A stretch of DNA of 64,000 nucleotides. Origin: Povalibacter uvarum. GTDB taxonomy: Bacteria; Pseudomonadota; Gammaproteobacteria; Steroidobacterales; Steroidobacteraceae. Below the pieces are notes generated by a model, which saw only the letters and a program-made list of their open reading frames with translations, ran no database searches and had not been told where the DNA came from. The DNA is taken from positions 137,913 to 201,912 of the forward strand of contig NZ_JACHHZ010000007.1 in assembly GCF_014202975.1 (NCBI RefSeq). Direction: 5' to 3'. The position numbers and the translations under genes were made by a program. This document shows, piece by piece, positions 30,458-41,259 of the stretch. How positions within the stretch are numbered: position 1 is the first letter of the stretch; every line of letters begins with the position of its first letter.

Positions 30458-30487
30458 CCCTGTCGCCAAATGCGAAGCCCCTGTCGC
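30458..30487 (-). promoter_or_regulatory. AraC-type operator A before the dioxygenase operon
   Basis: On the + strand two identical half-sites, CCCTGTCGC, lie at 30458-30466 and 30479-30487, starting exactly 21 bases apart. An AAATG follows the first half-site. The same two-part element occurs at 37345-37374 and 40182-40211 with identical spacing. Its orientation toward the dioxygenase gene (start 30611, 124 bases away) matches that of the other two sites toward their genes. Direct repeats at 21 bp fit two tandem AraC-family monomers. Confidence 0.75.
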
Positions 30488-30610
30488 TATTTGCCAGACG
30501 CATGCCCGACCGCATCCACTAACGTCAGGACCGCTGGAAAGGCGGCCGCTGCAAGGTGGTGATTCGCCCTCCGGCGCCCCGGTTCTTCCAACCCCGGAAG
30601 AGAGCGTTGC

Positions 30611-31459
30611 ATGCGAATCGAGCCCCTTACCTGCGCCATCGGTGCCGAACTGGTCGGCGTCAGCCTCGCCGAGGCGGCTTACAACGCCGACCTGTTCGGC
30701 GAGGTCAAAGCTGCCCTGCTGCGCTATCGCGTGCTCTTCCTCCGCGACCAGGATATCTCGCGTGCAGCTCATGTCGCGTTTGCGTCCCGGTTCGGGAAGC
30801 TCGAAGACCATCCGGTCGCGCCGAGTCATCCTGACTTTCCCGGTCTCGTTCAGATCTACAAGAGTCCCGAGCACCCGGCCGATCGCTACGAAAACGCCTG
30901 GCATACGGATGCGACCTGGCGCGACGAGCCGCCGATGGGATGCGTGCTGCGTTGCGTCGAATGCCCGCCGGTCGGAGGCGACACGATGTGGGCGAACATG
31001 GCGCTTGCTTACGAGCGGCTTCCGGACGAGATCAAGGCGCGAATCGCCAATCTGCGCGCCCGTCACAGCATCGAAGCTTCATTCGGTGCCGCGATGCCCA
31101 TCGAGAAGCGCCTCGCTCTCAAAGCACAGTATCCCGACGCCGAGCATCCGGTCGTGCGCACGCACCCCGAAACCGGCGAGAAGATCCTGTTCGTGAACGC
31201 GTTCACGACGCACTTCACCAACTATCACACGACCGCCAACGTCCGTTACGGACAGGATGCGAATCCCGGCGCGTCCGACCTCCTGCGTTACCTGATCAGC
31301 CAGGCGTTCATTCCCGAGTACCAAGTGCGCTGGCGATGGAAGCCGAACAGCATCGCGATCTGGGACAACCGCAGCACGCAGCACTACGCCGTGATGGATT
31401 ACCCGCCGTGCCATCGCAAGATGGAACGGGCCGGCATCATGGGCGACAAGCCTTTTTGA
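30611..31459 (+). CDS. TauD/TfdA-type 2-oxoglutarate/Fe(II) dioxygenase
   Basis: A 282-residue dioxygenase. The facial triad is visible: H98-x-D100 (WHTDATW) and H258 (NRSTQHYAVMDY), with R269 in the following segment as a likely 2-oxoglutarate contact. The family hydroxylates a wide range of sulfonates, aromatic ethers, amines and carboxylates, so the substrate is open. It starts the operon with the BKACE gene 25 bases downstream; an operator lies upstream. A first hydroxylation step of a catabolic route is inferred. Confidence 0.9.
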   Translation: MRIEPLTCAIGAELVGVSLAEAAYNADLFGEVKAALLRYRVLFLRDQDISRAAHVAFASRFGKLEDHPVAPSHPDFPGLVQIYKSPEHPADRYENAWHTDATWRDEPPMGCVLRCVECPPVGGDTMWANMALAYERLPDEIKARIANLRARHSIEASFGAAMPIEKRLALKAQYPDAEHPVVRTHPETGEKILFVNAFTTHFTNYHTTANVRYGQDANPGASDLLRYLISQAFIPEYQVRWRWKPNSIAIWDNRSTQHYAVMDYPPCHRKMERAGIMGDKPF

Positions 31460-31484
31460 GTTCTGTAGCAGAAGGAAACACCGC

Positions 31485-32588
31485 ATGAATTTCCTCGACG
31501 GCTCCCTCTTTCCCGAGAACCAGCAGAAGCTCGTCATCACGGTCGCGCCATATGGGCCGGAGTGGATGCCCGCTGACTTCCCGGAAGACATTCCGGTGAC
31601 GATGGAAGCGCAGATCCAGAAAGCGGTGGATTGCTACAACGCCGGCGCGACGGTGCTGCACCTGCACGTGCGCGAGCTCGACGGCAAGGGCTCGAAGCGC
31701 CTGTCGAAGTTCAACGAACTGCTCGCCGGCATTCGCGCCCGTGTTCCGCAGCTGATCCTGCAGGTCGGCGGCTCGATCTCTTTCGCGCCGGAAGGCGAGG
31801 GCGAAGCAGCGAAGTGGCTGTCGGACGATACGCGCCACATGCTCGCTGAGCTGCAGCCGACACCGGACCAGGTGACGATTGCGATCAACACGAACCAGAT
31901 GAACATCGTCGAGCAGATGGTCCCCGCCGACCTCGCCGGCACATCGATTGCAGAGCCGGCGCTGTATCGCGCCTACCGCGAAATGACGATTCCCGCCGGA
32001 CCGGAGTGGGTCGAAGAACACATCCGTCGCCTGTCGGCCGCGGGCATCCAGACGCATTTCCAGCTCGCGAACAACTCGCAGCTCGAAACAGTCGAACGCA
32101 TGATGCGTCGTGGCGCGGCGAACGTGCCGTTGATCCTCACGTGGGTCGCGATCGGCGGCGGCTTCGATGCGCCGAACATCTACAACCTAGCGAACTTCGT
32201 GCGGGCCTGCCCGGACGGCTCCGTGCTGACGCTCGAGACGTCGATGCTCAACGTGCTGCCGCTCAACATGATGGCGATCGCCATGGGCCTGCACGTGCGT
32301 TGCGGCATCGAGGACAACATCTGGACGCAGCGCCGGGACAGCAAGATGTCCTCGGTCGAGCAGATCGAACAGCTCGTTCGCATCTCCCGCGAGTGCGGGC
32401 GCGACATTGCGAACACGCAGGAAGCCCGCGAGATCTACCGCATCGGCACCTTCTACAAGGATGCTGACGAAACTCTGGCAGCGAATGGCTTCGCGCCGAA
32501 TCGCAAGCCGGGCCAGCTGGGGTTCACCCAGCATGCACCCAGTGCACCGGTTCGTCCGGTGATGACGCCGCGCAAAGTCGCAGTCTGA
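31485..32588 (+). CDS. BKACE-family beta-keto acid cleavage enzyme (DUF849)
   Basis: A 367-residue TIM-barrel protein of the beta-keto acid cleavage enzyme family, which uses acetyl-CoA to split beta-keto acids; 3-keto-5-aminohexanoate and 3-dehydrocarnitine are known substrates of members. The zinc-binding HLHVRELDGKG motif is at about 62-72 and the late VRCGIEDNIWTQR segment matches the family VRxGLEDN motif. It lies 25 bases after the dioxygenase gene in the same direction. With a dioxygenase it could process a hydroxylated then oxidised acid; the substrate is unproven. Confidence 0.9.
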   Translation: MNFLDGSLFPENQQKLVITVAPYGPEWMPADFPEDIPVTMEAQIQKAVDCYNAGATVLHLHVRELDGKGSKRLSKFNELLAGIRARVPQLILQVGGSISFAPEGEGEAAKWLSDDTRHMLAELQPTPDQVTIAINTNQMNIVEQMVPADLAGTSIAEPALYRAYREMTIPAGPEWVEEHIRRLSAAGIQTHFQLANNSQLETVERMMRRGAANVPLILTWVAIGGGFDAPNIYNLANFVRACPDGSVLTLETSMLNVLPLNMMAIAMGLHVRCGIEDNIWTQRRDSKMSSVEQIEQLVRISRECGRDIANTQEAREIYRIGTFYKDADETLAANGFAPNRKPGQLGFTQHAPSAPVRPVMTPRKVAV

Positions 32589-32597
32589 TCTTCATCG

Positions 32598-32695
32598 AGC
32601 CGAAAGCTCGCGGCTGATAGTCCACGCCACGGACGGACCTCACCGGCCAGGACGGCCGGTTGAGTCGTGGGCTGTCAGCGCGCGAGCTTTCGGCT
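32598..32695. repeat. Nested long inverted repeat (structured RNA or terminator-like element)
   Basis: Bases 32598-32626 and 32666-32695 are inverted copies with a few mismatches or bulges, together about 29 bp of stem. Inside lies a second stem at about 32639-32648 and 32654-32664 with a 5-base loop. The whole element fills the gap between the BKACE gene and the hydrolase gene. No T-run follows. It could be a processing or attenuation structure, or a mobile palindrome. Confidence 0.7.
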
Positions 32696-32708
32696 ATCGG
32701 AAACCCTC

Positions 32709-33284
32709 ATGTCCTTTCCGCCGACACTGCTGATCATTCCTGGCCTGCGCGATCATGTCCCCGACCACTGGCAGACGCTGCTGGCGAAGAAGCTGTCGTC
32801 GAACCGCCTCGTCTGCTCTGTGCCGCCGCTCGGTCGCGTGGATCTGAGCTGCGCGAAACGGGTTGCGGCGATCCAGCAGTCGCTCAAAGCAATTCATGGC
32901 CCTGTCATCGTCGTGGCTCACAGCGGTGGCGTCATCTCGCTCGCTCATTGGGCGCAAAGGCACGGCCGTGCCAACGTCGTCGGTGCCGTGCTGGCTGCAC
33001 CCGTGGATCTGGATACCCCGCTCCCAGAGGGCTACCCCACGTTCGCCGATCTACAGCACAGCGGCTGGTTCCCTGTGCCGCGTGCGCAGCTGCCGTTCCC
33101 CAGCCTGGTCGCGGTGAGCAGCAACGATCCTCTGGCGGAGCAGTCGCGTGTCGAGCAATTCGCCCGTGACTGGGGAAGCGATTGCGTGCACGTGGGTGCC
33201 GTCGGTCACCTGAGTCCTGCGTTCGGATTCGGCGAGTGGCCGCAGGCGGAGGATCTCATCGCGCGATTCGATCGGTCGATCTGA
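32709..33284 (+). CDS. RBBP9/YdeN-family serine hydrolase
   Basis: A 191-residue alpha/beta-hydrolase of the RBBP9/YdeN type. It starts MSFPPTLLIIPGLRDHVPDHW, with the oxyanion-side motif LLIIPG. The nucleophile is in VIVVAHSGG (about 75-84) and a late His occurs in GAVGHLSPAFGFGEW; an Asp near SNDPLAE may complete the triad. These enzymes are small esterases of mostly unknown substrate. It is in the same direction as the dioxygenase and BKACE genes, after the long inverted repeat. Confidence 0.85.
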   Translation: MSFPPTLLIIPGLRDHVPDHWQTLLAKKLSSNRLVCSVPPLGRVDLSCAKRVAAIQQSLKAIHGPVIVVAHSGGVISLAHWAQRHGRANVVGAVLAAPVDLDTPLPEGYPTFADLQHSGWFPVPRAQLPFPSLVAVSSNDPLAEQSRVEQFARDWGSDCVHVGAVGHLSPAFGFGEWPQAEDLIARFDRSI

Positions 33285-33299
33285 GACGGCGATCGTCCT

Positions 33300-33707
33300 T
33301 CACGACGGAAACCGGTCGAAGCCGGGAATCGCCTCCAGCGCGTGATCCCATCCGGCGCGACTGGCCGTGAACAGGTGCGCGTCCGGCCTCGCGACGAGGT
33401 CGCTGTCCAGCGAGCCCGCCGGCACTACGAGCAGCTTGCCTTCCATCTGCAGCATCGGCAGCGCTGAGCCGCAATTCCCGCAGAAGCAGCGGGCGTGCCG
33501 TGTTCCCGGCAGATTGAACTGACGCCTATGGTCTTCGCCGGAGATCCAGCGAAGCGTGGCAGTCGACGAGAACAGATTGGCGGCGTGCGCCGAGCCGGTG
33601 TCCTTCCGGCAATGCTGGCAATGGCAGAGGAAGAATCGCTCGAACGATCCTGTGATTTCGAAGCGGATCTCGCCGCACAGGCAAGAGCCAGAATAGGTGC
33701 TGCTCAT
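33300..33707 (-). CDS. GFA family zinc-binding protein (second copy)
   Basis: A 135-residue protein from the ATG at 33707 (GGGAGAAG upstream). It has the family's Cys pattern: GSCLCGEIRF near the start, CHCQHCRK at about 29-36 and CFCGNCG near 75. The C-terminal part carries a LFTASRAGWDH segment. It is related to the protein at 22617-23015 but not adjacent to it. Role unknown. Confidence 0.88.
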   Translation of the reverse strand: MSSTYSGSCLCGEIRFEITGSFERFFLCHCQHCRKDTGSAHAANLFSSTATLRWISGEDHRRQFNLPGTRHARCFCGNCGSALPMLQMEGKLLVVPAGSLDSDLVARPDAHLFTASRAGWDHALEAIPGFDRFPS

Positions 33708-33788
33708 TGTTCTTCTCCCGAGTCTCGATTGAACCGGAAGCGTTGCATTCCCGAGAGTTGGCGGCAAGCAAAAGCACAGACGGCACGA

Positions 33789-33874
33789 AGCGCTTTCCGT
33801 CGTCCCCGCGAAAGCGGGGATCCGTGCCTTGTTCCGGATGGATCCCCGCTTTCGCGGGGACGACGGAAAGCGCT
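33789..33874. repeat. 86-base perfect REP-like palindrome
   Basis: Arms 33789-33823 and 33840-33874 are perfect 35-bp inverted copies around a 16-base loop. The core CCCCGCGAAAGCGGGG matches the palindromes at 46183, 48985, 58168 and 63418. It sits between the GFA gene and the YeiH-type gene. Confidence 0.85.
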
Positions 33875-33880
33875 GCGCGC

Positions 33881-33936
33881 TGACGTGCGGCTGAAGCCGG
33901 ACCCTGCGTTCTGGCTAGCCGGCTACCAGCTCATCT
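33881..33936. repeat. Second dispersed repeat (GGGTCCGGCTT type) with GGCTAGCC module
   Basis: The reverse of 33881-33904 matches 59376-59399 at 22 of 24 bases. It is followed by a GGCTAGCCGGCTA module (about 33913-33925) that recurs near 59321 and in varied form at 63363-63410 and 63539-63562. It touches the 3' side of the YeiH-type gene. Confidence 0.65.
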
Positions 33937-33952
33937 TGCTGGCCAGCTTCTT

Positions 33953-34981
33953 TCAGCCCAGCCAGTGTGACAGCCCGAGCACCAGACACGCGAGCAACAC
34001 GGTCTCGATGACCATCAGGATGACCGGCTTCAATCCCACGGCGGCCAGTTCCTTCAGCTGAGTCTTCATGCCTATCGCGCTCATCGCGATCGCCAGGCAC
34101 CAGCGTGAGACATCATTGGCGACGTCGCGGGTAGCGGAACCGATCCAACCGAGGCTGTTGAATGCCGCCAGAGCCACGAAGGCGACGGCGAACCAGGGTA
34201 ATAGCGGCGGCCGTGTGCCGCGACCATCGCCTTGTGCGCGAGTGATCATGGCAGCGCATACGATCACGGGCAGCAGCATTGCGACCCGCATCAGCTTGAC
34301 CACCGTGGCAACGTCGCCAGTTTCCTGCGACATGCTGTAGCCGGCACCGACGACCTGCGCAACGTCGTGGATCGTGCCGCCAATGAACAGGCCCGCTGCT
34401 GCCGGCGACAGGTCGAGCAGATGCGCGATGAGCGGGTAGACGATCATAGCGATCGTGGACAGCGCGGAAACGCCGATCACGGTGAACGTCGTGGCTTTCT
34501 CCTTGCCCGGATGAGCGGGCAGCGCGGCGGAGAGCGCAAGGGCAGCAGACGCGCCGCAGATCGCGGTGGCTCCGCCCGTCAGGAAGCCGAACAACGTGTG
34601 GAAGCGCATCCACCGCGCCAGCAGCGTCGACACGCCGATCGTGACGACGAGCGATACGATGACGATGACGGGCGGCTGCCAGCCCAGCTGCGCAATCTGA
34701 TCGAACGTCACCCGAACCCCGAGCAGCGCGACACCAGTACGCAGAACGGCACGCGCAGAGAAGTCGATGCCTGCGGCGCAACGCGTTTCGCCCGAGAGGA
34801 AATTCATCGCGATGCCGAGCAGCAGCGCGAAGAGCATCAGCGGCGCCTGATAGTGATCCGCCAGGAAAGTGGCAGCTGCGGCAACGATGGCTGTGACCGT
34901 CAGCCCAGGCAGCAGTTCGCGACTGCGTTCCGGGAACGTCACCATCGCGTCGCGAACGATCGAAAGTGTCGTGGAGACCAT
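33953..34981 (-). CDS. YeiH/UPF0324 family putative exporter
   Basis: A 342-residue membrane protein with about ten hydrophobic helices. Family motifs are visible: GVALLGVRVTFDQIAQLGW (about 88-106) and TGGATAICGASAALALSAALP (about 140-160), then GLFIGGTIHDVAQVVGAGY. YeiH-type proteins are thought to export small anions or sulfonate products, with low certainty. Its start lies 4 bases after the MFS gene stop, so it is the last gene of the quinone oxidoreductase-MFS-YeiH operon. Confidence 0.88.
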   Translation of the reverse strand: MVSTTLSIVRDAMVTFPERSRELLPGLTVTAIVAAAATFLADHYQAPLMLFALLLGIAMNFLSGETRCAAGIDFSARAVLRTGVALLGVRVTFDQIAQLGWQPPVIVIVSLVVTIGVSTLLARWMRFHTLFGFLTGGATAICGASAALALSAALPAHPGKEKATTFTVIGVSALSTIAMIVYPLIAHLLDLSPAAAGLFIGGTIHDVAQVVGAGYSMSQETGDVATVVKLMRVAMLLPVIVCAAMITRAQGDGRGTRPPLLPWFAVAFVALAAFNSLGWIGSATRDVANDVSRWCLAIAMSAIGMKTQLKELAAVGLKPVILMVIETVLLACLVLGLSHWLG

Positions 34982-34985
34982 GGGC

Positions 34986-36269
34986 CTACGCCAGGTCGGC
35001 ACGCATTTCGCTATGCCGGAGGTCCGTGCGACAGCACCGCGCGGCGCGAGCAAACAGTAGAGCTGAGGCAAGGCACACGAGTGGCACGAGCTGCAGCGCC
35101 GTCGTCAGACCATAGACGTCGGCGAGGGCGCCGACGACGATCGGCCCCGGCGCCAATCCGAGCAGATTGTTGGCCAGCGAGAGCGTGGCGAACGCGGTGC
35201 CATGGATAGGCGCCGGTGTGAGATTGGCGACCATTGCGCCCGAGGGCCCTACGGTTCCCGCGCCTACGAACATGCCCAGTCCGATCAGAACCAGTTGCGG
35301 CAGACCAGGCGGCAACTGGAATGCGATTGTCAGTACCAGGAAGCACGTCAGGCAATACGCAATCGCGAGCCCGAATTTCGTGGTGGGCGAGTCGCGACCG
35401 ATACGATCGCTGAGGTTCCCGCAGAGCGCCATGCCTGTGGCACTCGCCAGCACGAACACCGCGGCGACGAGGGCTCCCTGTGCGACGGGCATGTGATATG
35501 CGCGGTTCAGATGGCTCGGAAGCCAGGCGAGCAGCGCTCCACTGACGAAGACCTGGACGCCGCTGCCGAGATAGGTGTAGATGACCGAGCAGCTGCCGAC
35601 GACGTCGCTCAGCTTCGGTCGCGGAGCCGTGGTCGATTGCTGCGGCGACGACGCTATCCGTCGCTCGCGAACGATGAGTGGATAGCAGATCGTCAACAAC
35701 CCGCCGAACACGGCCATTCCGGTGAAGGCGCTGCGCCAGCCGAATTGTTGCGCGAGCAGCCCGCCGATCGAGATGCCCAGCACTGAGCCGATCATGCTGC
35801 CGGCGAGAAACATCCCTGTGATGGTGGCTCGCAATCGGGCAGGAAAGACGGTCAGTACGACGGCGAGACCGACGCTGCCATAAGCCGCTTCACCGACGCC
35901 AACGAGCAGGCGCGCGATGAGCATGTGCTGAAAGTCCTGTGCAATCGCGCAGCCGAGCGTGGCCACGCTCCACAGAGCCGCCATCAGCACGAGGCTGCGG
36001 ATGCGGCCCCATCGATCGGCGAGCAGCGAGAGCGGCAACGCCAGCAAGCCCACCGCGAGCGACACGATGCCACTGAGCGTTCCGAGCTGGGCATCGGACA
36101 ACGCCCATTCTGCTTTGAGGTGCGGAAAGACTGCGTTGAGCACCTGCCGCGACATGTAGTCCGACAGCAGCAGGCCGAACGTCACGGCGAAGACGATCCA
36201 CGCGTACCTGCGCGATACCGACACCTCGGCGTCGTTTTCCAGAGCAGCGTTCCGAACAGGAAGCGCCAT
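34986..36269 (-). CDS. MFS transporter
   Basis: A 427-residue, 12-helix major facilitator protein. The loop 2-3 motif is DRWGRIRSLVL, and loop 8-9 has SDRIGRDSPTTKFG, both typical of the family. The N-terminal part (FGLLLSDYMSRQVLNAVFPHLK) resembles transporters of aromatic or carboxylic acids. It could import the regulon's substrate across the inner membrane. Its stop lies 4 bases before the YeiH start and its start is 24 bases after the quinone oxidoreductase stop. The ATG has a GGGAG site. Confidence 0.9.
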   Translation of the reverse strand: MALPVRNAALENDAEVSVSRRYAWIVFAVTFGLLLSDYMSRQVLNAVFPHLKAEWALSDAQLGTLSGIVSLAVGLLALPLSLLADRWGRIRSLVLMAALWSVATLGCAIAQDFQHMLIARLLVGVGEAAYGSVGLAVVLTVFPARLRATITGMFLAGSMIGSVLGISIGGLLAQQFGWRSAFTGMAVFGGLLTICYPLIVRERRIASSPQQSTTAPRPKLSDVVGSCSVIYTYLGSGVQVFVSGALLAWLPSHLNRAYHMPVAQGALVAAVFVLASATGMALCGNLSDRIGRDSPTTKFGLAIAYCLTCFLVLTIAFQLPPGLPQLVLIGLGMFVGAGTVGPSGAMVANLTPAPIHGTAFATLSLANNLLGLAPGPIVVGALADVYGLTTALQLVPLVCLASALLFARAARCCRTDLRHSEMRADLA

Positions 36270-36293
36270 GAGTTTCGCTCCCGGATGAAGAGG

Positions 36294-37274
36294 TCAGATG
36301 ACGAAGATGGAGGAGCCCGTGGTCCTGCGCGACTGCAGGTCCTGGTGCGCCGCCACGACATCTTCCAGCGCGTAGTGCTGGTTGATCTCGATCTTGATGC
36401 GTCCGCTGCCGACGTTGTCGAACAGCTCCTGCGCCAGCGCGGCCTTCTCTGCGGGATCCGCGATGTAGTCCGCGAGAGCCGGCCGCGTCAGGAACAGCGA
36501 GCCTTTCATCGCGAGCAACTGCGGATCGAAGGGCGGAATCGTTCCCGACGCCGTGCCGACGTTGACGAGCAGGCCGCGGCGTTTGAGCGAGTCGAGCGAC
36601 GCCATGAAGGTGTCCTTGCCGACGCTGTCGAAGACGACATCGACACCGACTCCGCCAGTCAGTTCACGGACGCGCTTCGCGACGTCTTCACGTGCGTAGT
36701 TCACCGTGTGGTCGCAGCCGTACGCACGCGCGAGGTCTGCTTTCGCGTCCGTCGACACCGTCCCGATGACCGTCATGCCGAGCAACTTCGCCCACTGCGC
36801 CACGATCAGGCCGACACCGCCTGCGGCAGCATGAAGCAGCACGACGTCACCCGGCTTGTGATCGCGAACACGACGCAGCAGGTAGGCAGCGGTGAGGCCG
36901 CGCATGGTCATTGCCGCCGCGGTTTCGAAGGCAATGGTCTCGGGCAGCCGGATCAGCGGCGCTGCCGGAATCAGCCGCTCGGTGCTGTACGCACCGAGTG
37001 TGTTGACGAAGCCGGTGTACGTGACGCGATCACCAACAGCGACATTGCTGACGTCCGTGCCGATGGCCGTGACGATGCCCGATGCTTCGACGCCGATGCC
37101 GCTCGGACGAGGGACCGGATAGAGACCGCTGCGGAAGTAGGTGTCGGCGAAGTTGAGGCCGACGGCGACATGGCGGATGCGGGCCTGTCCCGGCCCGGGA
37201 TCGCCGACTTCGACGTCCTCGAGGCGCAGCACTTCAGGACCGCCGACATGATGGAAACGAACTGCTTTCGCCAC
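36294..37274 (-). CDS. NADPH:quinone oxidoreductase-type medium-chain dehydrogenase
   Basis: A 326-residue zinc-free MDR of the quinone oxidoreductase group. The N-terminal GroES-like domain is followed by a Rossmann motif (LLHAAAGGVGLIVAQWAKL, about 146-164). Cys ligands of the zinc-binding subgroup are not seen. The start is GTG at 37274 with GGAG upstream. It is the first gene of the operon with the MFS and YeiH genes and has an AraC-type operator 71 bases upstream. Its role is reduction of an enone or quinone intermediate, by family. Confidence 0.9.
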   Translation of the reverse strand: MAKAVRFHHVGGPEVLRLEDVEVGDPGPGQARIRHVAVGLNFADTYFRSGLYPVPRPSGIGVEASGIVTAIGTDVSNVAVGDRVTYTGFVNTLGAYSTERLIPAAPLIRLPETIAFETAAAMTMRGLTAAYLLRRVRDHKPGDVVLLHAAAGGVGLIVAQWAKLLGMTVIGTVSTDAKADLARAYGCDHTVNYAREDVAKRVRELTGGVGVDVVFDSVGKDTFMASLDSLKRRGLLVNVGTASGTIPPFDPQLLAMKGSLFLTRPALADYIADPAEKAALAQELFDNVGSGRIKIEINQHYALEDVVAAHQDLQSRRTTGSSIFVI

Positions 37275-37344
37275 GAGATTCTCCGCGATCGCTGCTGCTG
37301 TGGATGAAGGTAGAAAAGTGCCGCCCGGGCAGCTACCTCATGGG

Positions 37345-37374
37345 GCGACAGGGGTTGTTCATTTCGCGACAGTC
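37345..37374 (+). promoter_or_regulatory. AraC-type operator B before the quinone oxidoreductase operon
   Basis: On the + strand, half-sites GCGACAGGG (37345-37353) and GCGACAGTC (37366-37374) start 21 bases apart, with CATTT just before the second. In the direction of the minus-strand gene they read as CTGTCGC repeats, the same arrangement as operators A and C. Confidence 0.75.
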
Positions 37375-37402
37375 GGGCTCACCAGGAGGAAGAGCCGGAT
37401 TT

Positions 37403-37525
37403 TCCACGGGGAACACAGGGAGCCACGGGGACAGAAAACGATCGAGTGTCGCGCTGCGATCGTCCTTATCGGCATTTCTGGGGGGAGATTGCTCTTACCC
37501 CGTGGCTCCCCGTGTTCCCCGTGGA
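37403..37525. repeat. 28-bp inverted repeat around a 67-base loop
   Basis: Arms 37403-37430 and 37498-37525 are inverted copies with one mismatch, made of CCACGGGG/GAACAC blocks. The element lies between the divergent ends of the receptor gene's 3' side and the quinone oxidoreductase leader. It could be a folded RNA or a short mobile repeat; nothing in the loop codes for protein. Confidence 0.65.
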
Positions 37526-37551
37526 GATTCTTTCTCCCGTTCCTTACTCTT

Positions 37552-37584
37552 CCTTCGGGCCCGGCATTGCACCGGGCCCGAAGG
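37552..37584 (-). terminator. 13-bp hairpin directly after the receptor gene
   Basis: Bases 37552-37564 and 37572-37584 form a perfect 13-bp stem with a 7-base loop, 7 bases beyond the stop of the minus-strand receptor gene. No T-run follows in that direction, so termination may be assisted or the hairpin may protect the mRNA end. Confidence 0.6.
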
Positions 37585-37591
37585 TGTTCGA

Positions 37592-39976
37592 TCAGTATTT
37601 CGCCTGGACGGAGATGCCGTACGAGCGTTGCGCACCGAGATAGTTCTGATACGTGCCGTCCGCCAGCGACGCGAAGAGATTCGACTGCGCCGTCTGGGTG
37701 ATGTAGGTCTCGTCCGTGAGGTTGCGCACCCACGTCGAAATTTCCCACGAGCCCTGGCGCCAGCCGAGACGCAGATTCGCGATCGCGTAGCCATCCTGCA
37801 TGCCGTGATTCGGATCGAGCTCCGACGTCACGTTCTGTTCGCCGATCCAGTTGCCGTCGAGGCGCGAGAAGATGGTGCCCGGACCCACGTCCTGTTCCCA
37901 CGTCAGGCCGGCTGTCGCAGTCAGCTCCGGTGCGAACGGCAACGTCTGGCCCGAGAGATCGCAGCCGCCCGTCGCGGGATCGTCAGGAGCGCGACCCGAG
38001 TAGCACGAGCCTTGCGTGTACTTCTCGTAGGTCGCTTCGGCATACGTCGCCGACATGTCGAGCGTCAGGCCGTCGGTGAGGCGGGCGGTCATGTCCGCTT
38101 CGAGGCCCTGCACGCGGACCTTCTCTGCGTTGTTGACCAGGAACTGCAGGCCGATGAACGACGCCGACTGGAAGTCGTCGTAGTCAGCGAGGAACGCTGC
38201 GGCGTTCAGGCGGACGCGGCCACCCCATTCGGTCTTCGCACCGACTTCGTAGCTGATGACGTCCTCGGAATCGAACGGACGTCGCGCCAGCGGGGTGTTG
38301 CCGAAGCCGCCGTTGTAGCCGCCACCCTTGAAGCCGGTTGCGACAGTCGCGTATGCCATTGCATCCGGAGTGAAGCGATACACCGTGTTGAACGTGCCGG
38401 TGACCGCATCCCATTCGTCGTTCAGGGCGAACGATGCCGCAGCCGGCGTCAGCAGGCGCACGGGCAGGGAGAGGCCTGCGAGCGGGCCCGGGGCGGAAGT
38501 GAACGGCGTGTTCGTGAGCGACACGTCCTTCTCTTCGAGCGAGTAGCGCAGGCCGAGCGTGACCGCGAGGCTGTCTGTCACGTCCATCGAGCTCTGCGCG
38601 AACGCGCCGTAGCTCTGGCTGTCGGAGATTTCGTAGAAATCGCCGGTGTCGCCGGGCAATCCGAATACGGGCACGTTCGGCAGCGTCGGCGATGCGATGC
38701 CCGCGGCGACGCCCAGTTCGTCGATGGCCTGACCCAGCGTGAATTCGTGCTTGTCTTCGTCGCCACGCTGGAAGTGGTTGTCGTAGAAGTACACGCCCGC
38801 CAGCCAGTTGAAGCGATCGCCACCGCGCGAGTTGATCCTCAGTTCCTGGCTGAAGGTCTCGCCGGTCTGGAAATCACGGTAGTTCACGAGCTCGAGGCCG
38901 GTCTGGCCGGCGTCGTTCCAGCTCTGCGTGACGTCGTAGACGTCGTAGCTCGAGAGCGAAGTGAACGTGAACGAATCAGCGGAGTATTCGATCGAAGCGA
39001 TGGCTTCGTCGGACTTCTGCTCGAACTGGAGCGGAGCAAGCGCCTGCACGCGGCGGTTCAGCGGATCGTTGTCGAGGATCGGCTGCGCGCTGGAGTTGAT
39101 GACGCCGTCTGCGAGGCCAGGGCCGTCGGCGGCACCGAGCGCGGCAGGATTCGCCGCAGTTGCGTTGACCAGGGCGCTGACAGCAGGACCGTAGTACATG
39201 TCGGCCAGTGCGGGCTTCATGTCGCGCTCGACATGCGAGCCGATGAGGCGGATCTGCCAGGAATCGCTGGGTTCGAACAGCAGCTGGCCGCGCACGGCGA
39301 ACTGGTTCAGATCGTCGCTGTCGTCACCGATCAGGTTATCGGCGATCGCGTCACGACGCGAGCCCGTCACGCTGAGTCGCGCGGAGACTGAATCTGTCAG
39401 GCCGCCGGTGACATAGCTGCGGACGCCCCAGAAGTTGTCGTTGCCGGAGGTCAGTTCGCCCATGGCGCCGAAGGTCTGGCTCGGCATCGCGGTGCGGACG
39501 CTGATTGCACCGGCAGTCACGTTGCGGCCGTAGAGAGTGGACTGCGGTCCGCGCAGCACTTCGACCTGTTCGATGTCGGCGAGGTCGCCCAGTCCGAGAC
39601 CGGAACGCGAGCGATATGCACCATCGATGAAGAGGCCCGTATCCGGTTCGAAATCCGGAATGTTGCCTTCGTTGCCGATGCGGCGGATGCGGTAACTCGT
39701 GTTGAAGGGATTCGAGTTCGTCGTCACGACGAGCGAGGGCACCACAACGGTGAGGTCGGCGACGTCGCGGATGCCCGCGGCCTGAACCTGCTCCGCGGTG
39801 ACGGCCGAGATCGCCATCGGGACATCCTGGATCGGTTCGGATGTCTTGCGCGCGATGACCTGAATTTCCTCGAGTGCGGTCACGCTGGTGTCGGCTGGTT
39901 CGGCCTGAGCCCGCGCCTGCTGCGAACCGAGAACGGTCGCGATGGCGAGCGTGAGCAACGAGTACGATGTCTTCAT
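37592..39976 (-). CDS. TonB-dependent receptor
   Basis: A 794-residue outer-membrane receptor from the ATG at 39976. The signal peptide ends near ARAQ. The TonB box-like segment (EEIQVIARK) is at about 36-44, the plug domain follows (IQDVPMAISAVTAEQVQAAG to about 165, with QVEVLRGPQSTLYGRN), and the 22-strand barrel fills the rest, ending with an aromatic residue pattern (YGISVQAKY). It would import the substrate of the 30-41 kb regulon; the substrate is unknown. It diverges from the AraC gene with operator C between them. Confidence 0.93.
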   Translation of the reverse strand: MKTSYSLLTLAIATVLGSQQARAQAEPADTSVTALEEIQVIARKTSEPIQDVPMAISAVTAEQVQAAGIRDVADLTVVVPSLVVTTNSNPFNTSYRIRRIGNEGNIPDFEPDTGLFIDGAYRSRSGLGLGDLADIEQVEVLRGPQSTLYGRNVTAGAISVRTAMPSQTFGAMGELTSGNDNFWGVRSYVTGGLTDSVSARLSVTGSRRDAIADNLIGDDSDDLNQFAVRGQLLFEPSDSWQIRLIGSHVERDMKPALADMYYGPAVSALVNATAANPAALGAADGPGLADGVINSSAQPILDNDPLNRRVQALAPLQFEQKSDEAIASIEYSADSFTFTSLSSYDVYDVTQSWNDAGQTGLELVNYRDFQTGETFSQELRINSRGGDRFNWLAGVYFYDNHFQRGDEDKHEFTLGQAIDELGVAAGIASPTLPNVPVFGLPGDTGDFYEISDSQSYGAFAQSSMDVTDSLAVTLGLRYSLEEKDVSLTNTPFTSAPGPLAGLSLPVRLLTPAAASFALNDEWDAVTGTFNTVYRFTPDAMAYATVATGFKGGGYNGGFGNTPLARRPFDSEDVISYEVGAKTEWGGRVRLNAAAFLADYDDFQSASFIGLQFLVNNAEKVRVQGLEADMTARLTDGLTLDMSATYAEATYEKYTQGSCYSGRAPDDPATGGCDLSGQTLPFAPELTATAGLTWEQDVGPGTIFSRLDGNWIGEQNVTSELDPNHGMQDGYAIANLRLGWRQGSWEISTWVRNLTDETYITQTAQSNLFASLADGTYQNYLGAQRSYGISVQAKY

Positions 39977-40181
39977 CGAAAAAACCCCCGGACATGTTGG
40001 TACGGCATGACCAGCCAACGAGCTTCTGGCGATGCAACAGTGGTGAACCTGGCGCCGTGCGCGAGACAGTGGTACTGCCGACGAGTCACCGGTCGCACCC
40101 CTCCCGTTCGTTGTTTCGTCCACGGCGTCAGGTCCGGAGACCGAGCCTAGAGGTCGCGCGCAGCCCCGTGCTGTGCACGGG

Positions 40182-40211
40182 ATGACAGGGCCTTTTCATT
40201 TCGCGACACGG
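40182..40211 (+). promoter_or_regulatory. AraC-type operator C between receptor and araC-type gene
   Basis: Half-sites ATGACAGGG (40182-40190) and GCGACACGG (40203-40211) start 21 bases apart with CATTTC before the second, as in operator B. It is oriented toward the receptor like the other sites toward their genes, 206 bases from its start, and is 56 bases from the regulator's ATG, so it may also act in autoregulation. Confidence 0.72.
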
Positions 40212-40266
40212 GGGCTAGAGTCGTTCAGGATTTACGCCCTTTGCCGAACCTGCGATACGACATCCA

Positions 40267-41259
40267 ATGACCCGCATGGTCCGCGCCGCGGCGCTCACGA
40301 ACTATTTCGACGTGGCCGAGCAGGTCGGTTTGAACCCGGTCACACTCCTCAGTGACGCTGGTCTCAATCGCACGATCCTCGCCAATCCCGACAACAAGAT
40401 TCCCGCCAGCGCCGCGGTCACGTTGCTCGAGGAGTCGGCGCGCATCGCCAGTTGTCCGACATTCGGATTGCGGATGGCGGAGACGCGGCAGATTTCGGAT
40501 TTCGGCGCGGTCGGATTGCTGGTCACGCACCAGCCGACGCTGCGAGAGATGCTGCTCGCGCTGATGAACTATCGGCACCTGCTCAACGAGGCGCTCACCC
40601 TGCAGATGAGCGACGTCGGCAAGCACGTCGTCATCCGCCAGGAAATAGTGACGGACCCGCCCATGTATTCGCGGCAGGCAACGGAGCTCGCGCTCGGCGT
40701 ATTGGCAAGAGCGGGCAGTGCGCTGCTCGGAAGTCACTGGAAGCCGGAGCGAGTGCTGTTCCTGCACGAAGCACCGGAGGATCTGCAACTGCATCGACGG
40801 CTGTTCCGCTGCAAGCTCGAGTTCGGCAGCGAGTTCAACGGCTTCGTCTGCAACTCCGCGGACCTCGACTATCCCTGCTCAGCGGCGAACCCTGCGTTGG
40901 CGCGCTATGCCGAGCAGCTACTGCAGACGTTGCCCAAGGCGACAGACAAGACGATCGAGGAGGAGGTGCACGAGGCGATCTACCTTCTTCTGCCGATGGG
41001 ACGGGCAACAGTCGAACAGGTGGCGCAGAGTCTCGCGGTGAACGTTCGTACTCTGCAGCGACAGCTCGAGGAGCGGGGCGTCACGTTCTCGGATCTGATC
41101 AACACCGTGCGCAGGGAGCTCGCGGTTCGCTACATCGAAAGCGGCCAGCATTCGCTCGGTCACGTGGCGGAGCTGCTGGGATACTCGACGCAGACATCGT
41201 TCACGCGCTGGTTCAAGAATGAGTTCGGCGTCGCGCCGACGCAGTGGGAGCGATCCTAG
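40267..41259 (+). CDS. AraC family regulator with N-terminal ligand-binding domain
   Basis: A 330-residue regulator. Residues about 20-205 match the Arabinose_bd-type N-terminal domain common in AraC proteins of catabolic clusters. The C-terminal two-helix-turn-helix domain spans about 230-330, with VEQVAQSLAVNVRTLQRQLEERG in the first HTH and LGHVAELLGYSTQTSFTRWF in the second. It is the best candidate to bind the three operators in this region. It diverges from the TonB-dependent receptor; the effector is unknown. Confidence 0.92.
   Translation: MTRMVRAAALTNYFDVAEQVGLNPVTLLSDAGLNRTILANPDNKIPASAAVTLLEESARIASCPTFGLRMAETRQISDFGAVGLLVTHQPTLREMLLALMNYRHLLNEALTLQMSDVGKHVVIRQEIVTDPPMYSRQATELALGVLARAGSALLGSHWKPERVLFLHEAPEDLQLHRRLFRCKLEFGSEFNGFVCNSADLDYPCSAANPALARYAEQLLQTLPKATDKTIEEEVHEAIYLLLPMGRATVEQVAQSLAVNVRTLQRQLEERGVTFSDLINTVRRELAVRYIESGQHSLGHVAELLGYSTQTSFTRWFKNEFGVAPTQWERS

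What the first reader, a model, noticed from the sequence alone, without database searches (positions are those of the whole stretch)
30458..40211. Three copies of a 21-bp-spaced operator define an AraC-controlled catabolic regulon
Half-sites of CCCTGTCGC / GCGACAGGG type occur in pairs starting exactly 21 bases apart at 30458, 37345 and 40182, always with the same orientation toward the gene they precede: the dioxygenase-BKACE operon, the quinone oxidoreductase-MFS-YeiH operon and the TonB receptor. The AraC gene next to the third site is the natural regulator. The match was found by eye and is unusually regular.
Basis: seen in the sequence. Interest (0 to 1): 0.8.

Follow-up and report, generated by a model that had tools for sequence, protein, structure and literature searches.

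The report
AraC switch for a catabolic cassette
Three matching DNA control sites in this bacterium form one switch, very probably worked by a neighbouring AraC-type activator, for a movable set of genes that breaks down a still unknown, possibly sulfur-containing, compound; the same switch and gene set recur in other bacteria.

Summary
The three sites are real and beyond chance. Each is a direct repeat of TGTCRYNNNNTG at 21 bp, followed exactly 26 bp later by a TANNNT -10-like hexamer, facing the TauD-BKACE, quinone oxidoreductase-MFS-YeiH and TonB-receptor genes. In the held genome (6.3 Mb, 98% complete) only these three fit the two-half-site patterns without mismatch. A Steroidobacter of the same genus keeps the AraC (91%), the cassette and sites 1 and 3. 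A site model trained only on these two genomes finds 133 sites at spacing 21, against 0-6 at any other spacing, in 79 loci (Pseudomonas, Aeromonas, Caulobacter and others) with AraC relatives at 54-61%; 123 of 133 have TANNNT at +25/26. The operator resembles the Pseudomonas ArgR box. Limits: no binding data; in 29 genomes 43 of 95 sites lie outside the cassette locus, so paralogous regulators may share the operator. Lead on function: in 7 of 7 Pseudomonas genomes with a SorA of >=86% identity, this sulfite dehydrogenase gene carries the operator, suggesting a sulfite-releasing (sulfonate) pathway. New member of a known kind.

The parts
30461..30493 (+). Operator 1: two direct half-sites TGTCRYNNNNTG, 21 bp apart
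30520..30525 (+). -10-like hexamer TAACGT, 26 bp after operator 1
   Evidence: same hexamer at the same distance in G002 (L071)
30611..31459 (+). TauD/TfdA-family 2-oxoglutarate dioxygenase
   Evidence: PF02668 223.1 bits; below the NCBIfam taurine dioxygenase cut-off; closest PDB chain 5vn6
31485..32588 (+). BKACE (beta-keto acid cleavage enzyme)
   Evidence: PF05853 205 bits
32709..33284 (+). Ser_hydrolase-family (PF06821) alpha/beta hydrolase, possibly third gene of this operon; frequent member of the cassette elsewhere, absent from the G002 cassette
33953..34984 (-). YeiH family (PF03601), labelled putative sulfate exporter; start is approximate, by homology with G002
34986..36269 (-). MFS transporter
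   Evidence: PF07690 177.3 bits
36294..37274 (-). NADPH:quinone reductase family
   Evidence: NF008024 356.5 bits, above cut-off 348
37307..37312 (-). -10-like hexamer TACCTT, 26 bp after operator 2
37339..37371 (-). Operator 2; absent in G002, where the quinone oxidoreductase gene directly follows the TonB receptor gene
37592..39976 (-). TonB-dependent receptor
   Evidence: PF00593, PF07715
40144..40149 (-). -10-like hexamer TAGGCT, 26 bp after operator 3
   Evidence: same hexamer at the same distance in G002
40176..40208 (-). Operator 3
40193..40221 (+). Possible araC promoter TTTTCA-N17-TAGAGT overlapping operator 3 (would allow autorepression); low confidence
   Evidence: read by eye (bases); same hexamers and spacing in G002
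40267..41259 (+). AraC/XylS-family regulator with Arabinose_bd (PF12625) domain; proposed activator
   Evidence: PF12625 145.5 bits, HTH_18 61.6 bits; orthologue 91% in G002

Best explanation
A compact single-input regulon. The AraC/XylS protein at 40267-41259, on binding an unknown pathway metabolite, is proposed to occupy two direct half-sites (TGTCRYNNNNTG, 21 bp or two helical turns apart) at each of three promoters. The promoter-proximal half-site ends 26 bp before the -10-like hexamer, so the bound protein would abut or overlap the -35 position, where no good -35 box is seen by eye. It would therefore recruit RNA polymerase in the class II manner. One operator serves each transcription unit: TauD-BKACE-(hydrolase), quinone oxidoreductase-MFS-YeiH, and the TonB receptor. 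Operator 3 may also cover araC's own promoter. Shown by computation: sites, geometry, restriction to this cassette in the held genome, conservation with the AraC and cassette. Inferred: binding, activation, effector. The cassette probably imports a compound through the outer membrane, oxidises it with the 2-oxoglutarate dioxygenase and cleaves a beta-keto acid. A sulfite-releasing (sulfonate) substrate is suggested but not established.
For: Perfect sites only in the cassette in the held genome. Same-genus G002: AraC 91%; homologous DNA begins at 30458 (operator 1) and ends at 41247 (end of araC), no DNA match in the flanks compared; operators 1 and 3 and their hexamers kept. Model trained on ten half-sites of window and G002: in 10 plasmid-borne loci (AraC 38-56%) the best site in the intergenic intervals tested ranks first or second of about 33,900 places in 8 loci. 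In 79 chromosomal loci (1,546,334 bp): 133 pairs >=20 bits at spacing 21 against 0-6 at each other spacing 15-30; 73 of 79 loci have one or more, 56 two or more; nearest same-strand cassette gene start within 400 bp is hydrolase 61, quinone oxidoreductase 54, TonB 6, other 12; TANNNT at +25/26 in 123 of 133. A stricter pattern, written from that consensus: 121 hits in these 79 loci, 0 in the reversed sequences; 95 hits in 29 whole genomes, reversed-pattern control 0.
Against: No binding or expression data. 6 of 79 chromosomal loci have no site >=20 bits. Of 10 plasmid loci, L108 and L113 have no convincing site, and one of the two intervals tested in L109 and in L112 has none; L106 and L107 are near-copies. 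In 29 genomes 43 of 95 sites lie outside the fetched cassette locus. I looked at 36 of the 43: 8 precede SorA, 7 belong to further cassette copies or lie just beyond the fetched flank, 5 precede PhaC-like genes, 4 DUF1329 genes, 12 other genes or unclear. So either the regulon is wider there or AraC paralogues share the operator. More distant AraC relatives show only a weak excess at spacing 21 and none clear in a motif-free test. Of 9 sites outside window and G002, only 3 have TANNNT exactly at +25/26.
Confidence: 0.85

Rival explanations
1. The operators are bound mainly by another AraC-family protein of the genome (a paralogue or an ArgR-like regulator), and the adjacent araC is only one of several that read the same sequence.
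For: In 29 genomes 43 of 95 sites of the same class lie outside the cassette locus, some in front of unrelated genes. The own genome has other relatives, e.g. 28% at C1:1469810. The ARG box of Pseudomonas ArgR has the same TGTCGC core and 21-bp period (PMC10963909, passages).
Against: In the window's genome the three perfect sites occur only in this cassette, and operator and AraC relative stay together in 73 of 79 loci.
Confidence: 0.12
2. The sites are repressor operators rather than activator sites.
For: One site could cover araC's own promoter (read by eye), as in autorepression.
Against: Upstream position with a constant gap to the -10-like hexamer and, by eye, no good -35 box 17 bp before it (GACGCA, TAGCTG, AGCACG) is the usual layout for activation by AraC/XylS proteins (recalled).
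Confidence: 0.08
3. The repeats are remnants of a dispersed repeat or mobile element without regulatory role.
For: Operator 2 lies beside a dispersed palindromic repeat (69 matches in the genome).
Against: The operators themselves are not dispersed in this genome and are conserved with their geometry across genera.
Confidence: 0.01

Closest known systems
ArgR of Pseudomonas (AraC/XylS) and its ARG box TGTCGC-N6-GNAA, repeated in tandem with 5 bp between (16+5 = 21-bp period); PMC10963909, passages read
   Same: TGTCGC core, direct repeat, 21-bp period. AA at positions 15-16 is present in both half-sites of the consensus of 94 distinct sites.
   Different: In the window AA at 15-16 occurs in only 2 of 6 half-sites; G at position 13 is not conserved (A 72% in the first half-site); position 5 is often A; an added ATG at 10-12 in most sites; the targets are a catabolic cassette.
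GliR (PA3027), AraC-type regulator of P. aeruginosa; PMC8151288, passages read
   Same: AraC type; one of its motifs overlaps the -35 of its target promoter; the NCBIfam GliR model matches the window protein, below cut-off.
   Different: Reported motifs YYGGCGHTDTYSGMC and GGAYAWCGCCG are unlike this operator; targets differ.
XylS/Pm (recalled, no call)
   Same: Two direct half-sites 21 bp apart, the proximal one against the -35, weak -35.
   Different: Other half-site sequence and other effector domain (recalled).
E. coli TauD, taurine dioxygenase (1gqw alignment)
   Same: Iron-ligand His and Asp and the equivalent of His70 in 72 of 72 relatives; second iron His and both C-terminal Arg in 70 of 70 read there.
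   Different: The equivalent of Tyr73 is Ala here and never Tyr in 72 relatives (Ala 62, Val 7, Thr 2, Asn 1); below the taurine dioxygenase equivalog cut-off.

Membership tests
AraC/XylS family, PF12625 (Arabinose_bd) branch | N-terminal Arabinose_bd domain and C-terminal AraC HTH above curated cut-offs | tested here: met
   145.5 bits (cut-off 27.6); HTH_18 61.6 bits (33.6)
AraC/XylS class II activator | Direct-repeat half-sites with fixed helical spacing, next to the -35/-10 | tested here: met
   spacing 21, TANNNT at +26 in 3 of 3, 0 of 5000 shuffles; 123 of 133 elsewhere at +25/26
AraC/XylS class II activator | Binding to the sites and ligand-dependent activation | not testable with these tools
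   needs EMSA/footprint and reporter assays
QhpR equivalog (NF049968) | Score at or above curated cut-off 250 | tested here: not met
   197.6 bits
GliR equivalog (NF050186) | Score at or above 570 | tested here: not met
   131.9 bits
CypR equivalog (NF053784) | Score at or above 500 | tested here: not met
   96.6 bits
ArgR ARG box | TGTCGCN6GNAA repeated with 21-bp period | tested here: inconclusive
   core and period met; full GNAA in none of the 6 window half-sites and AA in 2 of 6; AA met in the 94-site consensus
Taurine dioxygenase equivalog (NF007104) | Score at or above 313 | tested here: not met
   249.9 bits
BKACE (PF05853) | Pfam gathering score | tested here: met
   205 bits, cut-off 24.8; none of the four NCBIfam models listed reaches its cut-off
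YeiH (PF03601 / TIGR00698) | Curated cut-offs | tested here: inconclusive
   Pfam met (244.8 bits, cut-off 24.5); TIGR00698 150.9 below 232.6

The most novel reading that the evidence does not exclude
A widespread, apparently undescribed regulon for an organosulfonate (sulfite-releasing) pathway: an AraC activator controls a TauD-like desulfonase, a beta-keto acid cleavage enzyme, export of sulfite by YeiH, exchangeable outer-membrane uptake modules (TonB receptor or DUF1302-DUF1329-YCF48-RND) and, in Pseudomonas, SorAB sulfite dehydrogenase.
Probability: 0.4. Interest if true: 0.65.

Novelty: new member of a known kind. Interest (0 to 1): 0.5.

Why it matters
The operator gives a precise, testable regulon for a catabolic cassette shared by Steroidobacter, Pseudomonas, Aeromonas, Caulobacter, Cupriavidus and others whose substrate is unknown. 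Because the same operator marks a sulfite dehydrogenase in some Pseudomonas, it points to a class of substrates to test, and so to a function for a TauD-BKACE-YeiH set that is otherwise named only by family labels.

Tried and rejected
Single half-site counts and a plain count of half-site pairs by spacing in the window carry little signal; the full two-part motif is needed. One search used a pattern with one base too few (my miscount); its four hits, all at 3 mismatches, serve only as an off-register control. The search of genome contigs with the window AraC alone found no relative; the alignment A1 then gave 512 relatives, of which the best 80 were kept. Motif tests on more distant AraC relatives gave a weak or no excess at 21; in those two scripts I took position 1501 as the gene start for all loci, which is wrong for seven loci near contig ends (L051, L059, L060, L075, L078, L085, L098), and included the G002 orthologue, so they are rough. 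Dispersed-repeat origin of the operators rejected. The one 1-mismatch site elsewhere in the own genome is inside a reading frame. Ten paper searches on the AraC, the operator, the cassette or the pathway showed no description of this regulon in their listings; the library lacks most subscription papers, so this is weak evidence of absence. Only PMC8151288 and PMC10963909 were opened (passages by term); all others were seen as search listings. The own genome has no good SorA (best E 5.6e-7, 34% over part of the protein), so the sulfite link is not shown in the window's organism. Seven of the 43 sites outside the cassette loci were not looked at.
Full report
OBSERVATION. On the strand of the gene they face they read TGTCGCCAAATG-N9-TGTCGCTATTTG (30461-30493, +), TGTCGCGAAATG-N9-TGTCGCCCCATG (37339-37371, -) and TGTCGCGAAATG-N9-TGTCATCCCGTG (40176-40208, -), all with a 21-bp period. 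Only 3 of 6 half-sites are exactly CCCTGTCGC. A single half-site is only slightly above chance in the window (409 against 371 +/- 17, reached by 1 of 100 shuffles), and a plain pair count has no peak at 21, so the evidence is in the full motif. The pattern TGTCGCNAAATGN6CCCTGTC with <=3 mismatches has six matches in the held genome (6,321,800 bases, 98.28% complete): these three with 0 mismatches and three with 3; reversed control 1. With TGTCRYN4TGN9TGTCRYN4TG there are 33 matches with <=2 mismatches: these three at 0, one at 1, 29 at 2, against 24 for the reversed control. The one-mismatch site lies inside a reading frame.

PROMOTER GEOMETRY. Exactly 26 bp after each operator stands a TANNNT hexamer: TAACGT, TACCTT, TAGGCT. 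None of 5000 shuffles of the three downstream stretches gave three at one offset. In 12 sites (three of the window, one of G036, eight of plasmid loci; the two G002 sites left out as near-copies) 6 have it at +25/26, reached by 0 of 5000 shuffles; three of these six are the window's own, so 3 of 9 others. By eye no good -35 box lies 17 bp before it (GACGCA, TAGCTG, AGCACG). This is the layout expected for a class II AraC/XylS activator (recalled). On the other strand, TTTTCA-N17-TAGAGT (40193-40221) overlaps operator 3 in front of araC, with the same hexamers and spacing in G002, so autorepression is possible; this was read by eye.

GENES. AraC at 40267-41259 has Arabinose_bd and HTH_18 domains but fails the NCBIfam cut-offs of QhpR, GliR and CypR. 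Operator 1 faces TauD, BKACE and, about 120 bp after BKACE, a PF06821 hydrolase (32709-33284), which the finding does not name. Operator 2 faces quinone oxidoreductase, MFS and YeiH; operator 3 the TonB receptor.

SAME-GENUS RELATIVE. Of 98 genomes searched (the own one included), 49 have some match to the AraC; apart from the own gene G002 has it at 91%, and the next best by E-value is at 28%. G002 is taken to be the record that names an uncultured Steroidobacter, because identity and contig length (292,994) agree. Comparing window 22000-52000 with 19.5 kb of G002, the homologous DNA begins at window base 30458, the first operator, and ends at 41247, the end of araC. The hydrolase stretch (32531-33953) is missing from it. 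Operators 1 and 3 and their hexamers are kept. Operator 2 is absent: there the quinone oxidoreductase gene directly follows the TonB receptor gene. In the window the gap also holds a palindromic repeat with 69 matches in the genome. Whether operator 2 was gained here or lost in G002 is open; elsewhere the quinone oxidoreductase gene often has its own operator (54 sites), which favours loss.

OTHER BACTERIA. A half-site matrix was made from the ten half-sites of window and G002 only. A plasmid search gave 587 records; I fetched ten loci with AraC relatives of 38-56%. The best site in the intergenic intervals that I chose ranks first or second among about 33,900 places in 8 of 10 loci (L104-L107, L109-L112); L108 and L113 have no convincing site, and one of the two intervals in L109 and in L112 has none. 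L106 and L107 are near-copies. Among 79 chromosomal loci (80 kept of 512 relatives, G002 left out; 1,546,334 bp) 133 pairs score >=20 bits at spacing 21, against 0-6 at each other spacing from 15 to 30; 73 of 79 loci have at least one, 56 at least two. Nearest same-strand cassette gene start within 400 bp: hydrolase 61, quinone oxidoreductase 54, TonB receptor 6, other 12. Seven of the twelve others are in Aeromonas (L209, L221, L223, L225, L226, L240, L241); for one of these genomes the next gene matches DUF1302 (L254). TANNNT stands at +25 in 114 and +26 in 9 of 133. Consensus of 94 distinct sites: TGTCAT[CG]AAATGAAAAGTNNCTG[TA]CG[TC]NNRATGNRAAGC-N19-TANWGT. These loci are related to one another, so counts are not independent events. 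Cassette genes in the 79 loci: hydrolase 71, TauD 61, BKACE 61, YeiH 60, MFS 60, quinone oxidoreductase 59, TonB 6 (identity thresholds 45%, 30% for MFS and TonB; some loci are cut by contig ends). In P. fluorescens FW300-N2E3 the hydrolase is followed by DUF1302, DUF1329, a YCF48-type protein and an MMPL protein, perhaps the outer-membrane module used in place of the TonB receptor.

WIDER USE OF THE OPERATOR. In 29 cassette-bearing genomes (30 asked, L253 not held) the pattern TGTCRYNAAATGNNAAN5TGWCGYNNRATG, written from the consensus, has 95 matches with <=2 mismatches in 28 genomes; the reversed control has none. The window's own sites differ from it by 2, 2 and 3. 52 matches lie in the fetched cassette loci, 43 outside. 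I looked at 36 of the 43: 8 precede SorA; 7 belong to further cassette copies or to a cassette operon just beyond the fetched flank (L295, L309, L285, L257); 5 precede PhaC-like genes (L292, L300, L302, L304, L307; 45-89% to the PhaC_N protein of L256); 4 precede DUF1329 genes; 12 precede other genes or were unclear. So in Pseudomonas either the regulon is wider or paralogous AraC proteins share the operator. This weakens exclusive assignment there more than in the window's genome.

SULFITE LEAD. One outside site in FW300-N2E3 precedes a gene that passes the SorA model (657.3, cut-off 600), followed by one that passes the SorB model (108, cut-off 93); its best PDB match is sulfite:cytochrome c oxidoreductase 2blf. 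Of 12 SorA-like matches (E <= 1e-30) in 11 of 29 genomes, the seven at >=86% identity, in seven Pseudomonas genomes, all have an operator 65-243 bp upstream on the same strand, with 0-2 mismatches. The other five do not: 68%, 65%, 36% and 34% have none within 2 mismatches, and 57% has one on the opposite strand. In G491 the SorA gene stands divergently beside a further cassette copy with its own AraC (51%), operators facing both ways. With TauD, whose sulfonate-contacting residues by recalled roles (His70, Arg270) are kept while Tyr73 is replaced in 72 of 72 relatives read (full-length matches only), and with YeiH, this suggests release and disposal of sulfite from a non-taurine sulfonate. Against it: 18 of the 29 genomes have no SorA match at that threshold, the own genome has no good SorA, and the link in Pseudomonas could run through a paralogous regulator.

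VERDICT. The kind of system, an AraC/XylS activator on TGTCGC-type direct repeats at 21 bp, is known: the Pseudomonas ArgR box has the same core and period (PMC10963909, passages). The regulator, its cassette and the extent of conservation appear undescribed in the library searched.

Noticed in passing
window 37398-37530: Palindromic element (38-nt arms, 87% complementary) beside operator 2, belonging to a dispersed repeat family with 69 matches in the own genome.
   Followed up: partly
window 33783-33880: Another strong inverted repeat (41-nt arms, 95% complementary) between the GFA-like gene and YeiH.
   Followed up: no
G002, e.g. C21:57597-57643 and C16:8639-8671: Tandem arrays of a 7-base unit TGTCGCC recur in the G002 genome and make up many of its 2-mismatch pattern hits.
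   Followed up: no
L256, L292, L300, L302, L304, L307 (Pseudomonas genomes): The same operator class stands in front of PhaC-like genes (PhaC_N in L256; 45-89% relatives in the others), suggesting that an AraC protein may govern them.
   Followed up: partly
L071 4291-6138 (G002): Genes resembling a persulfide dioxygenase, an ArsR-type regulator and a rhodanese lie directly before the cassette in G002 (my reading of the translations).
   Followed up: no
L254, L257 (Aeromonas): Operator-bearing genes lie beside CoA-transferase subunits and a PEP-mutase/ICL-family gene, which would fit acetoacetate and perhaps propionyl-CoA as products.
   Followed up: partly
L237 12324-12650: A small Rieske-domain gene sits between MFS and YeiH in the FW300-N2E3 cassette; I saw none between MFS and YeiH in the window, where the two genes adjoin.
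   Followed up: partly
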